Shown: piece by piece, positions 55,738-59,590 of the stretch
Layout of the letters: each line of letters opens with the position of its first letter
Numbering within the stretch: position 1 is the first letter of the stretch
Source: Hesseltinella vesiculosa
Lineage: Eukaryota > Mucoromycota > Mucoromycetes > Mucorales > Cunninghamellaceae
Reading direction: 5' to 3'
Assembly: GCA_002104935.1 (NCBI GenBank)
Contig: MCGT01000013.1
Location: forward strand, 124,001-188,000
DNA length: 64,000 nucleotides
Translations under genes and position numbers: made by a program
The notes under the pieces: model-generated
Told to the model about the DNA's origin: nothing
Seen by the model: the letters and a program-made list of their open reading frames with translations, nothing else
Databases searched by the model: none

Positions 55738-56292
55738 TCACTCGAGGCGGCGGCGACACATCGACGCATGACGGCGGAGGAAGTATCGGTACTCTGGGCT
55801 GCCCCGCTCCAAGGAGAAGCCCATGGACTTGTACAGTTGCAGCTGGCAGATGAAACTGCTCCTGGGCCTGATGGAAGGACGCCGGAGTCGAATCATATGA
55901 AGGGCCCGGTGGTGATGCATGCCACCTTTGGCCATCAGGTAAGCTGCGACAACGGTGGCACTGCGCGACTGGCCAGCCAAGCAATGAACCAACACACCAG
56001 TGCCTTGCCATCGTCCTTGTTCAATAAACGCAAAGGTATCATCAAAGTGTTCCAAAAGATTGTCATAGCGAGTGTCACCAACAGACAAGTTCTAACCCCG
56101 ACGAGCATGAGTGTCCATGAAAACCAGAAACAGTGTCCTTCTTACCATGTATTTAATGTGTTGGCCATGACGATCGTAACCACAGCCGATAGCCAAGACG
56201 TGTGAGATATTGCGTCTTTGGAGCCAATGTAAACTTCGGCCACTGACAAGGTTACCAAGGTAGAGTCGTGGTACAATCAAATCAGCCTGCAT
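55738..56292 (-). CDS. Short dual-specificity phosphatase, YVH1 paralogue without zinc domain
   Basis: Exons 56292-56146 and 56091-55738 (166 aa). LIVPRLYLGNLVSGRSLHW, FAFIEQGRWQGTGVLVHCLA, HCLAGQSRSATVVAAYLM (HCx5R intact) and SPEYRYFLRRHASM align throughout with the YVH1 phosphatase domain next door. The first intron falls at the same place (after the HIKYM/KISYL strand). The protein stops where YVH1 continues into the zinc-binding domain, so ribosome-maturation function is unlikely. It may act as a free phosphatase. Confidence 0.88.
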
Positions 56293-57085: not shown

Positions 57086-59590
57086 ATGCAAGAACAAACA
57101 CAAGATACCAAGTTTGTAGAAACATTGGAGATTGAAGACACTGGTGAAAAACATGAATATGGATATGAACATGAATCCATCCACGTGCAAGATGCCGAGG
57201 CTGGTCCTGAAGCGGTGGATCTACAAAAAGGCACAAAACGTAGTTTGCGCACGCGTCATATCACCATGATTGCCCTTGGTGGATCCATTGGGTAAACCAG
57301 CACTATTCGTCATAGACAAGTACACTGATATTTGTTCTACTAGCACTGGTATCTTTTTAAACATGGGAGCCAATATCGCAAATGTAAGTGACGTTCACTT
57401 TTTTTTTTTAATATAAACCCAACCTTTTTCATTTTCAGGCGGGACCGGCTGGTGCCTTTATTGCGTATGTCGTCAGTAAGTATCAGATCCAAAACGCCCC
57501 CTCCCCGACTTTTTTGTAACTCACATCATAAACCTTGAAATAGTTGGGTTCATGGTCTACTGTTTGATGACCTGTCTCTCAGAAATGGCAGCTTATATTC
57601 CCGTAAGTTTGGATCAACAGGACCGAGGGAAAAAAAAAAAATGTTCCAAAAATGGACAGTGGTGCCCCTGTGATGAGAAAAAAAATGTCTAGATCGGGCA
57701 AAACCCATCCTCACTCTCGCTTCCTCTTTGTTCCATTTTATATTTTATTTTGTTGTTTGTTTAGGTATCTGGAGCATTCAATCACTATGCCCATCGGTTT
57801 ATTGATCCGTCCCTTGGTTTCTCACTTGCTTGGAACTATTGGTAAAGAAAGAAAATGATAAAAAGGGGGCGGGAAAACGCAGAAAAACAACGTTCATGAC
57901 GATGTAACTCTAACTCTTTTTTTAAAATTGACAGGCTTGGCGTAAGTCCTTTTTTAGCTTGCAATGATAAAGAGTACAGAGACTGATAGATATGTTCGTT
58001 TTGGGGTTCATCTTTTTGGCTAGTGGGTAAGTTGATAGAAAACAAGGAAGGAGCAGAAGATATTCACTTTTTTTTCCTTGACGGAAGGGTGTAACAGTGG
58101 CGACAGAGTTGGCAGCTGCTGCAACCATCATTGACTTTTGGAAAACAGTGATGCCCGATGCGGCGTGGGGTGCCATGTAAGACTAAAACAATATACAGAT
58201 GATTCATCCTCCATACTCACTCTTTCATATAGTATCATGGTCATCTTTGTCACATTTAACTTGCTCAGTGTCAGGTAAAAAAAAAGGGAGGGGAAAGGCT
58301 GCCCCAGCACGTTTTTTTATTCATTTTTAAATGCCGCTTACGACAGGATCTATGGTGAATCCGAATATTATTTTGCTCTCATCAAAGTGCTGATGGTGGT
58401 GGTGTTTATCATCATTTGCATTGTGTTCACAACCGGCGGCATGGGAAGTCAAGGACCAATTGGTTTCAAGTATGCCGACTGCCACCGTTAAGATAAAACT
58501 CACTGTCGTCCTCTCCTGCGTAGATATTGGGTGACACCCGGCCCTTGGGTGGATGGTCCGGTGGGTACCGTCAGCGTGCTACTTTCAGCTGGCTTCTCTT
58601 TCCAAGGCGCCGAAATTGGTAGGGCTCGAGTCAAACAAAAAAGCAAAGGCTGACCCCCCCCTTTTTTTTTTTACTAGTGGGTATCACTGCTGGTGAGGCC
58701 GAAAATCCAGCCAAGGCTGTGCCCCGGGCCATCAATAGCACCTTCTGGCGTATTCTCTTGTTTTACGTGCTGACCATTTTATTCCTTGGCATGTGTCTGC
58801 CTTCCGACGACCCCGACTTGGCCTCGGATGGCTCGCCTACCACGTCTCCTTTCACCTTGGTATTCAAGGCTGCTGGCATCGGCGCTGGGGTCCATGTTGT
58901 CAATGCCATCGTCCTCATCAGTGTTCTCTCAGCCTGCAACTCATCTCTCTATGTCACTTCCCGTGTGATGCTTGGTCTGGCCCGAGACGGCCATGGTCCT
59001 CAATGGCTTGCCCTCACCAACCGCTACGGTGCTCCGTACGTAGCCGTCCTTCTTTCCAGCGTCATTGGCTTTGTGTGCTGCTTTGTTAGCATCTACAGTG
59101 CCAAGGTTGCGTTTGTCTGGTTCCTGAACATCACTGCTGTGTCTGGATTCTGCAGTTGGATGTTCATCGGCATCGTCCAATACCGCTTCCGCCAAGCCTT
59201 TGTCAAACAAGGTCGCGACCTCGATGACCTTCCTTACAAGAGCCCTTATTTCCCCTACCCCAGTCTTATTTGCAGCGTTCTCTGCTTCGCCATCATCATC
59301 GGCCAAGGTACGTCGTACAAAGCAAAACTTCCTTCCTACTCACGCTCTCGTTAGGATACACGGCCTTCACCCCGACTTTTGATGCTGGCAAGTTTGTTGC
59401 CAATTACATTGGTATTATTCCCTTCTTTGTCCTTTATATCATTCACAAGGCCGTTGTGCGAAAGCCTTTTGTGGCCGTCAAGGACATGGACTTCGAAACC
59501 GGCCGAGTCAAGCGTGCCGACATTGACAAATACCTCGCCGAAAAAGTAGACGAAACTTGGTACCAAAAGCTCGCCTACCTCTTTACCTGA
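57086..59590 (+). CDS. Amino-acid permease (APC superfamily, fungal YAT family)
   Basis: Plasma-membrane amino-acid/proton symporter, 547 aa. Exons: 57086-57291, 57344-57383, 57439-57475, 57544-57602, 57765-57841, 57935-57941, 58024-58026, 58088-58176, 58233-58274, 58347-58469, 58524-58618, 58678-59307 and 59355-59590. An acidic N-terminus leads to LRTRHITMIALGGSIGTGIF (TM1 signature) and SGAFNHYAHRF. Then comes LAWNYWLGWGVTVATEL. ITAGEAENPAKAVPRAI and the hydrophobic series to the C-terminal YQKLAYLFT complete the fold of about 12 membrane helices. Two microexons of 7 and 3 nt are needed to give the family spacing between NYW and the TEL motif. Substrate specificity cannot be read from the sequence. 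Confidence 0.9.

What the first reader, a model, noticed from the sequence alone, without database searches (positions are those of the whole stretch)
57841..58088. Two consecutive microexons of 7 nt and 3 nt in an amino-acid permease
After ...NYW the next large exon begins GVTVATEL. Permeases of this family keep six residues between NYW and the next block (as I recall, NYW-x6-LAAE). The gap holds ACAG|GCTTGGC|GTAAGT (57935-57941) and CTAG|TGG|GTAAGT (58024-58026). Splicing both adds exactly Leu-Gly-Trp with phases 2 to 0 to 0 and gives NYWLGWGVTVATEL, the expected length. Skipping the 7-nt exon breaks the frame.
Basis: partly seen in the sequence, partly recalled or inferred. Interest (0 to 1): 0.85.

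Follow-up and report, generated by a model that had tools for sequence, protein, structure and literature searches.

The report
Three-letter exon encoding a permease's gate
In a mould's amino-acid transporter gene, one exon only three DNA letters long appears to supply the single tryptophan that grips the cargo, and public databases have left this residue out of many related fungal proteins.

Summary
The gene is a LysP-like permease of Hesseltinella vesiculosa (Mucorales), 13 exons at 57086-59590. A 7-nt exon (57935-57941) and a 3-nt exon TGG (58024-58026) lie between GT-AG introns. They are the only join in the gap that gives an open 10-nt insert.

The deposited protein (P0001) contains the 7-nt exon's residues and lacks exactly the Trp of the 3-nt exon. 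Two paralogues have the same 7+3 nt arrangement between diverged introns. A third keeps only TGG, and its deposited model contains the Trp.

Of 158 homologues retrieved, 48, from 25 genera, lack precisely this residue. On a tree, W/no-W changes at least 11 times, as expected of annotation error rather than real loss. A Logan protein that looks transcript-derived has the Trp; its eight nearest deposited relatives lack it.

By alignment the Trp is Trp105 of P. aeruginosa LysP, the cation-pi gate for lysine.

So this is a conserved, often missed 3-nt exon encoding a substrate-gate residue, most likely constitutive and spliced sequentially by intron definition (inferred). No cDNA of this gene or genomic DNA of other species could be read. 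Microexons down to 1 nt are known: a new member of a known kind.

The parts
57086..57291 (+). permease exon 1 (start codon at 57086)
   Evidence: identical to deposited P0001
57344..57383 (+). exon 2
57439..57475 (+). exon 3
57544..57602 (+). exon 4
57765..57841 (+). exon 5, ends ...AAC TAT TG (phase 2)
57842..57934 (+). intron 5, 93 nt, GTAAAG...GACAG, CTAAC branch-like site at -25
57935..57941 (+). exon 6, 7-nt microexon GCTTGGC: completes the Trp140 codon and encodes Leu141-Gly142
   Evidence: residues present in deposited P0001; 7-nt counterparts GTTGTCT and GTTGGAG in L039 and L040
57942..58023 (+). intron 6, 82 nt, GTAAGT...GCTAG
58024..58026 (+). exon 7, 3-nt microexon TGG = Trp143, aligned with LysP Trp105; absent from deposited P0001
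   Evidence: a TGG exon also in three paralogous loci of the genome
58027..58087 (+). intron 7, 61 nt, GTAAGT...GGAAG
58088..58176 (+). exon 8, begins GVTVATEL (Glu150 aligned with LysP Glu112)
58233..58274 (+). exon 9
58347..58469 (+). exon 10
58524..58618 (+). exon 11
58678..59307 (+). exon 12 (630 nt, largest)
59355..59590 (+). exon 13 with stop codon

Best explanation
The interval holds two genuine consecutive coding microexons, of 7 nt and 3 nt, in a LysP-like (YAT/APC) amino-acid permease of Hesseltinella vesiculosa. The 7-nt exon is needed for the reading frame. The 3-nt exon TGG encodes one residue, Trp143, aligned with the lysine-gating Trp105 of bacterial LysP, in transmembrane helix 3. 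The mRNA normally includes both. Because the three flanking introns are short (61-93 nt) and U1 and the 3'-splice-site factors cannot plausibly both sit on a 3-nt exon, the introns are probably removed one after another by intron definition: once one flanking intron is gone, TGG is part of an ordinary exon. The 3-nt exon is probably ancestral to the Mucorales copies of this subfamily, and gene models often drop it because skipping it keeps the frame. SHOWN: sequence, frame, uniqueness of the join, paralogue conservation, the single-residue gap in relatives, alignment to Trp105. INFERRED: inclusion in this gene's mRNA, order of splicing, the exon's presence in other species' DNA, lysine as substrate.
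For: (1) Exact sequence, phases and open 547-aa frame. (2) One open 10-nt join in the gap in each of three loci: focal, L039 and L040. Shuffles with W..W and GTAA donors: 1, 2 and 0 of 5000. (3) Paralogues L039 and L040 keep 7+3 nt although their introns are at most 8 points above shuffled identity in nine comparisons. L042 keeps TGG alone, and its deposited protein P0029 has the Trp. (4) Deposited P0001 equals the model minus exactly that Trp. (5) Of 158 proteins, 48 lack exactly this residue and 67 match a W pattern: 14 in the Mucoromycota subfamily and 53 outside it, bacteria included; 43 matched neither. Of those 43, two lie outside the subfamily: P0154 has the Trp, P0136 has Phe there; neither lacks the residue. 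(6) On a tree without the motif, W/no-W needs at least 11 changes, 8 forced by starred branches. (7) P0041 (Logan, contigs up to 2738 nt) has an unbroken 556-aa ORF with the Trp. P0129 (Logan, 5479-nt contig) is 100% identical over residues 174-556 but starts at MPDPAW, as an intron-broken genomic copy would. (8) Mucor flavus P0053 reads W-V-R-A, which fits TGG|GTAAGR read into the donor. (9) Five deposited proteins read NYC where others read NYW, which fits an intron after TG of that codon, as before the 7-nt exon. (10) Gapless alignment puts the Trp on LysP Trp105; the W-less P0001 needs a gap there. (11) In the AlphaFold model of P0029 the Trp (148) lies inside helix 134-166; the closest solved fold is LysP 9eyd.
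Against: No cDNA of this gene was available. The deposited model lacks the Trp, and I could not see whether transcripts support that model. No genomic DNA of another fungus could be read (one viral-contig scan confirmed nothing), so the exon elsewhere is inferred from proteins. The Trp is not wholly invariant outside the subfamily: P0136 has Phe there. Intron 7 has an AAG acceptor and its only YTRAY match in -45..-10 is at -10; L039 intron b and L040 introns a and c have none. YAGTGGGTAWGT alone is not distinctive: 34 hits in the genome against 20 for the reversed control. Seven of nine intron comparisons are slightly above the shuffle mean. No-W rows are more clustered on the tree than shuffled labels (1 of 500 as low), as expected if the trait is confined to one group.
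Confidence: 0.9

Rival explanations
1. The deposited model is right: the mRNA joins the 7-nt exon directly to exon 8 (one 146-nt intron), the Trp is absent, and these permeases really lost it.
For: P0001, P0002 and 46 further deposited proteins lack the residue. The join has a GT donor and an AG acceptor and keeps frame.
Against: TAG|TGG|GTAWGT is kept in four loci of this genome, the focal one included; where flanking introns were compared (focal, L039, L040) they have diverged to near shuffle level. W and no-W alternate near the tips, at least 11 changes. Loss would remove the residue aligned with the LysP gate. P0029 and the transcript-like P0041 include the Trp.
Confidence: 0.05
2. The 3-nt exon is alternatively spliced: frame-neutral inclusion or skipping makes Trp-plus and Trp-minus permeases with different transport properties, a one-residue switch.
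For: Length divisible by three; skipping stays open; both forms occur among proteins of the subfamily. Regulated frame-neutral microexons are known elsewhere (PMC7392893, passages).
Against: No isoform data at all; the donors of both microexons are full consensus GTAAGT, which favours efficient inclusion (inference); the W/no-W contrast seen here is between single models of different genes, not isoform pairs of one gene.
Confidence: 0.08
3. A complex or nested intron (stwintron) rather than exons: the intervening sequence is removed in steps and leaves nothing, TGG being only part of the splicing signals.
For: Nested introns removed by consecutive splicing occur in fungi (PMC6616335, abstract).
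Against: Each of the three introns has its own donor and acceptor. Leaving nothing gives a stop at codon 142. The retained letters restore a conserved peptide.
Confidence: 0.02

Closest known systems
Single-nucleotide exon of Fusarium CYP621A (PMC12940212; abstract and discussion read)
   Same: Fungal ultra-short exon inferred because a conserved motif and the phase could not otherwise be rebuilt; conserved among orthologues; a problem for annotation.
   Different: 1 nt, needed for frame, confirmed by SRA reads there. Here 3 nt and frame-neutral, next to a 7-nt exon, encoding a whole residue aligned with a ligand contact, with no reads for this gene.
Conserved, misannotated plant microexons such as the 1-nt exons of APC11 and VPS55 (PMC8831610, passages; PMC4674806, passages and discussion)
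   Same: Conserved tiny exons absent from reference annotations; sequential intron-definition splicing proposed for APC11; GTRAGT donors at VPS55.
   Different: Plants; those were confirmed by RNA-seq and RT-PCR.
3-bp micro-exon 8 of Drosophila homothorax (PMC7392893, passages)
   Same: 3-nt exon, conserved over long times.
   Different: Alternative donor choice within a 48-bp exon; animal transcription factor; isoforms with separate functions.
Microexons in Phanerochaete P450 genes, shortest exon 6 bp (PMC1184071, passages), and the Xlr2 microexon of Trichoderma virens (PMC11121469, passages)
   Same: Short coding exons in fungal genes.
   Different: Longer than 3 nt in Phanerochaete; Xlr2 is a regulated switch; other gene families and other phyla.
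Pseudomonas aeruginosa LysP, PDB 9eyd (PMC12764776, passages and section 9)
   Same: Best solved relative (E 2.6e-121); positions Gly33, Trp105, Glu112, Lys162, Phe215, Ser216 and Gln218 identical in the focal protein.
   Different: Asn104 is Gly and Ser377 is Thr in the focal protein, so strict lysine specificity is not established; the bacterial gene has no spliceosomal introns (established knowledge).

Membership tests
Coding microexon (ultra-short, 15 nt or less) | internal exon of at most 15 nt between GT-AG introns | tested here: met
Coding microexon (ultra-short, 15 nt or less) | inclusion restores frame and the conserved protein sequence | tested here: met
   7-nt: skipping gives a stop. 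3-nt: restores a residue present in all 55 retrieved proteins outside the subfamily, as Trp in 54 and Phe in P0136
Coding microexon (ultra-short, 15 nt or less) | conserved in related genes | tested here: met
   three further paralogous loci for the 3-nt exon, two for the 7-nt exon; other species by protein only
Coding microexon (ultra-short, 15 nt or less) | present in transcripts of this gene | not testable with these tools
   no reads available; P0041 is indirect evidence in a relative
LysP-like YAT amino-acid permease (APC superfamily) | AA_permease domain PF00324 over its gathering score | tested here: met
   P0001: 440.8 bits against 24.6
LysP-like YAT amino-acid permease (APC superfamily) | NCBIfam amino acid permease model TIGR00913 over its curated cut-off | tested here: not met
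   best NCBIfam match, but 490.5 bits against a cut-off of 578.7 (P0001); so 'LysP-like', not filed as a TIGR00913 member. That TIGR00913 is the YAT model is recalled
LysP-like YAT amino-acid permease (APC superfamily) | substrate and proton-coupling residues named for LysP | tested here: inconclusive
   7 of the 9 positions checked are identical (G33, W105, E112, K162, F215, S216, Q218); N104 is G and S377 is T
Spliceosomal twin intron (stwintron) | internal intron interrupts a splice signal of an external intron, with no exonic residue left | tested here: not met
   three donor-acceptor pairs, 10 coding nt retained
Recursive-splicing (RS) exon | exon start rebuilds a 5' splice site at the upstream junction | tested here: not met
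   junctions GGC|TGG and TTG|GCTTGGC put no GT at the junction (definition from PMC6224609, passages)

The most novel reading that the evidence does not exclude
The 3-nt exon is a regulated one-residue switch in these fungi: including TGG makes a gated, lysine-type permease and skipping it makes an in-frame permease without the gate Trp, so the W/no-W split in databases partly reflects real isoforms.
Probability: 0.07. Interest if true: 0.85.

Novelty: new member of a known kind. Interest (0 to 1): 0.58.

Why it matters
If right, a substrate-gating residue is supplied by an exon consisting of its codon alone, apparently kept across the Mucorales. That makes a natural test substrate for how a spliceosome handles a 3-nt exon between short introns; the order of intron removal can be measured. 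Practically, 48 of the 158 retrieved proteins, from 25 genera, lack one residue in the predicted substrate site, and eight start just downstream of it. That can mislead structure prediction, functional assignment and cloning from predicted cDNAs.

Tried and rejected
Other joins: AG..GT internal exons of up to 150 nt in the gap (minimum intron 40 nt) were enumerated, singly and in pairs. In the focal gap 3 single-exon and 5 two-exon joins are open, and one of these eight inserts 10 nt.

The 12-mer YAGTGGGTAWGT as a genome-wide finder was rejected: 34 hits against 20 for the reversed control. Four of the 34 are the permease loci. In one search the script searched one strand only, so the nine minus-strand loci were not read, and four hits had no locus; among the rest several look like ordinary exon ends or repeats.

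Orthologous fungal DNA: one viral-contig scan matched 11 stretches and confirmed none. Genome contigs (prokaryotes) was not scanned and metagenome contigs is capped at 0.

Branch points: a YTRAY scan was inconclusive.

Circularity: alignment A1 was built only from proteins that I had seen to contain the Trp, so its 'invariant W148' is no evidence and is not used as such. The no-W pattern was written after seeing the subfamily's motif. Of the 43 proteins that matched neither pattern, I looked at the two outside the subfamily only when checking this report: P0154 has Trp and P0136 has Phe.

Tree: quick method, LG+G4, with a long-branch warning among the outgroups. It held the 62 classified subfamily proteins of 158 plus 5 outgroups; the 43 were left out. 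Order was looked up for Hesseltinella (Mucorales) and Umbelopsis (Umbelopsidales) only; for the other genera 'Mucorales' is recalled. P0088, of unnamed origin, was counted outside the subfamily although it joins Jimgerdemannia on the tree.

Literature: searches listed no paper on microexons of Mucoromycota; a Mortierella paper (PMC4462047) holds the word only as an aligner setting. Only the listed part was seen, and one search was ranked towards taxon terms. 'Not in print' is claimed for nothing wider.

Full report
WHAT IS THERE. The window lies in a 27.05-Mb, 85-contig genome, at contig C5 124001-188000. The spliced permease matches P0001, an NCBI protein of Hesseltinella vesiculosa (DM01DRAFT_1407290), whose contig length of 657,222 equals that of C5; the genus belongs to Mucorales. 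I modelled 13 exons at 57086-59590 with introns of 47-162 nt and an open frame of 547 aa. Leaving out the 7-nt exon gives a stop at codon 143, leaving out both a stop at codon 142; leaving out only TGG keeps the frame.

THE DEPOSITED MODEL. P0001 has 546 aa and equals my model except for one missing residue, the Trp of the 3-nt exon. So the 7-nt exon's residues are already in the deposited protein and the 3-nt exon's is not. The paralogue P0002 shows the same single-residue gap (NYWLS-AVTVATEL).

IS IT MORE THAN CHANCE. In the 246-nt gap, an open join with a 10-nt insert is found once (introns of at least 40 nt, up to two internal exons); the same is true of the paralogous gaps L039 and L040, each with 7+3 nt. 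In dinucleotide shuffles some open 10-nt join is common (2397, 1025 and 3490 of 5000 for the three loci). Restoring W..W is rare (33, 10 and 45), and with GTAA donors rarer (1, 2 and 0).

PARALOGUES. L039 (C5:549001-552500) has GTTGTCT + TGG and L040 (C34:1194001-1197500) has GTTGGAG + TGG. L042 (C22:192801-196000) has Phe-Ser fused to the upstream exon and keeps TGG alone, with donor GTATGT. The flanking introns of focal, L039 and L040 are between 0.6 points below and 8 points above shuffled identity in nine comparisons, whereas TAG|TGG|GTA is kept in all four loci. The deposited protein of the L042 gene, P0029, does contain the Trp. More distant permeases of the genome (L041, L043-L046) encode the stretch without interruption there (L041 read by eye); L047 seems to have an intron at another point (by eye).

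OTHER FUNGI. Three homologue searches gave 158 proteins (each lists only its best 120). At this site 48 lack exactly one residue, 67 match a pattern with the Trp, and 43 match neither. The 48 come from 25 genera, by recall all Mucorales. Of the 67, 14 belong to the Mucoromycota subfamily and 53 lie outside it, bacteria included. Of the 43, 41 are subfamily members that are truncated or garbled here; P0154 (Trp) and P0136 (Phe) lie outside it. So of 55 retrieved proteins outside the subfamily, 54 have Trp, one has Phe, and none lacks the residue. On a tree built without the motif, 58 rows (48 no-W, 10 W) form one group (SH-aLRT 98), with Umbelopsis (3 of 3 W) and Jimgerdemannia (W) outside it. 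W/no-W needs at least 11 changes, 8 of them forced by starred branches. Real loss and exact regain of one Trp that often is implausible; models that sometimes catch a 3-nt exon and mostly miss it explain it. The label is nevertheless more clustered than in shuffles (1 of 500 as low), as it must be if the introns are confined to one group.

TRACES OF THE EXONS IN OTHER SPECIES. Mucor flavus P0053 reads LSW-VR-AVT, which fits TGG followed by GTAAGR. Dichotomocladium P0024 reads FS-VC-AVT, which fits a GTATGY donor read through after Phe-Ser. Five proteins (P0020, P0023, P0055, P0057, P0071) read NYC instead of NYW, which fits an intron after the TG of that codon, as before the 7-nt exon here. 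Eight of the 158 proteins begin at MPD[AP].W, just downstream of this region (P0081, P0090, P0091, P0095, P0104, P0106, P0125, P0129). One, P0081 (372 aa), is on a contig of the length of C34 and fits the L040 gene.

TRANSCRIPT-LIKE EVIDENCE. P0041 comes only from 'lgn' (which I take to be Logan) assemblies, 4 contigs, longest 2738 nt. It is an unbroken 556-aa protein and has the Trp. P0129, a protein on a 5479-nt contig of the same source, is identical to it over residues 174-556 and starts at MPDPAW. I read these as a spliced transcript and an intron-broken genomic copy of one gene; the kind of library was not visible. The eight highest-scoring other hits of P0041 (P0044, P0045, P0035, P0034, P0043, P0026, P0042, P0038) all lack the Trp; the next two (P0059, P0079) are garbled at the site and P0053 has the Trp with two extra residues.

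WHAT THE RESIDUE DOES. The best solved relative is Pseudomonas aeruginosa LysP (9eyd, E 2.6e-121). The alignment is gapless here, and chain number plus 12 gives the paper's numbering: the letters at all nine paper-named positions agree. The 3-nt exon's Trp143 falls on Trp105, and the Gly of the 7-nt exon on Asn104. In LysP, Trp105 on TM3 makes the cation-pi contact with lysine and is proposed as the gate; mutations of key coordinating residues, mostly to alanine, abolished transport (PMC12764776, section 9 and passages; W105A is not named in the main text). P0001 without the Trp needs a gap exactly there and scores 399 instead of 409 bits. In an AlphaFold model of P0029 (mean pLDDT 78.5) the Trp at 148 lies inside helix 134-166, and Foldseek ranks 9eyd first (TMt 0.88). 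Lysine as substrate is not shown: Asn104 is Gly and Ser377 is Thr in the focal protein.

HOW IT PROBABLY WORKS. The introns around the 3-nt exon are 82 and 61 nt long, and the donors of both microexons are GTAAGT. Recognition across a 3-nt exon is sterically implausible, so I expect intron definition with removal one after the other, the model proposed for the 1-nt exon of Arabidopsis APC11 (PMC4674806, discussion). The order cannot be told from sequence. The first intron of the pair to go leaves TGG joined to a normal exon, so the second step is ordinary. Skipping TGG stays in frame, which would explain why annotation errors there go unnoticed. The Trp itself is older than the introns (it is in bacteria), so the 3-nt exon arose by two introns flanking one codon, not by exonisation of intron sequence (inference).

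COMPARISON AND NOVELTY. Exons of 1 nt (Arabidopsis APC11; Fusarium CYP621A) and 3 nt (Drosophila hth) are known, and misannotation of conserved plant microexons is documented. Fungal microexons are known in P450 genes and Trichoderma Xlr2. This is therefore a new member of a known kind. What is unusual is the consecutive 7+3 nt pair, the single-residue gap in deposited proteins of many genera, and an exon that consists of a substrate-gate codon alone. It fits neither a stwintron nor a recursive-splicing exon.

LIMITS. No cDNA of this gene and no genomic DNA of other fungi could be read. The deposited model itself omits TGG, and whether transcripts back that model is unknown. Branch-point signals are inconclusive for intron 7.

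Noticed in passing
L042 (G000:C22:192801-196000), about 1196-1214: The P0029 gene has a further 19-nt exon (AGCGTGACCATTGCCACAG) directly after its TGG exon, so a 3-nt and a 19-nt exon are adjacent there.
   Followed up: partly
L040 (G000:C34:1194001-1197500), P0081: The deposited protein that fits this paralogue is cut to 372 aa and starts at MPDAAW just after the microexons; seven further proteins retrieved start at the equivalent point.
   Followed up: partly
window 57935-57941 and paralogues: The 7-nt exon encodes the position aligned with LysP Asn104; it is Gly here, Ser in L039 and Glu in L040, so paralogues may differ in substrate.
   Followed up: no
P0136 (Geranomyces variabilis): A chytrid permease has Phe in place of the gate Trp (NYFFGFG), with the same spacing.
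   Followed up: no
window 55738-56091 (-): Neighbouring gene on the other strand encodes a dual-specificity phosphatase domain (PF00782, E 4.3e-24).
   Followed up: no
L057/L058 (G000:C21, first 2.7 kb): Contig end is a long tandem repeat that reads open in several frames (units like KWVSALF/QVGECSF); it holds two of the YAGTGGGTAWGT hits.
   Followed up: no
L053, L069, L075, L077: Four similar copies of a repeated coding element share the same TAGTGGGTAAGT site.
   Followed up: no
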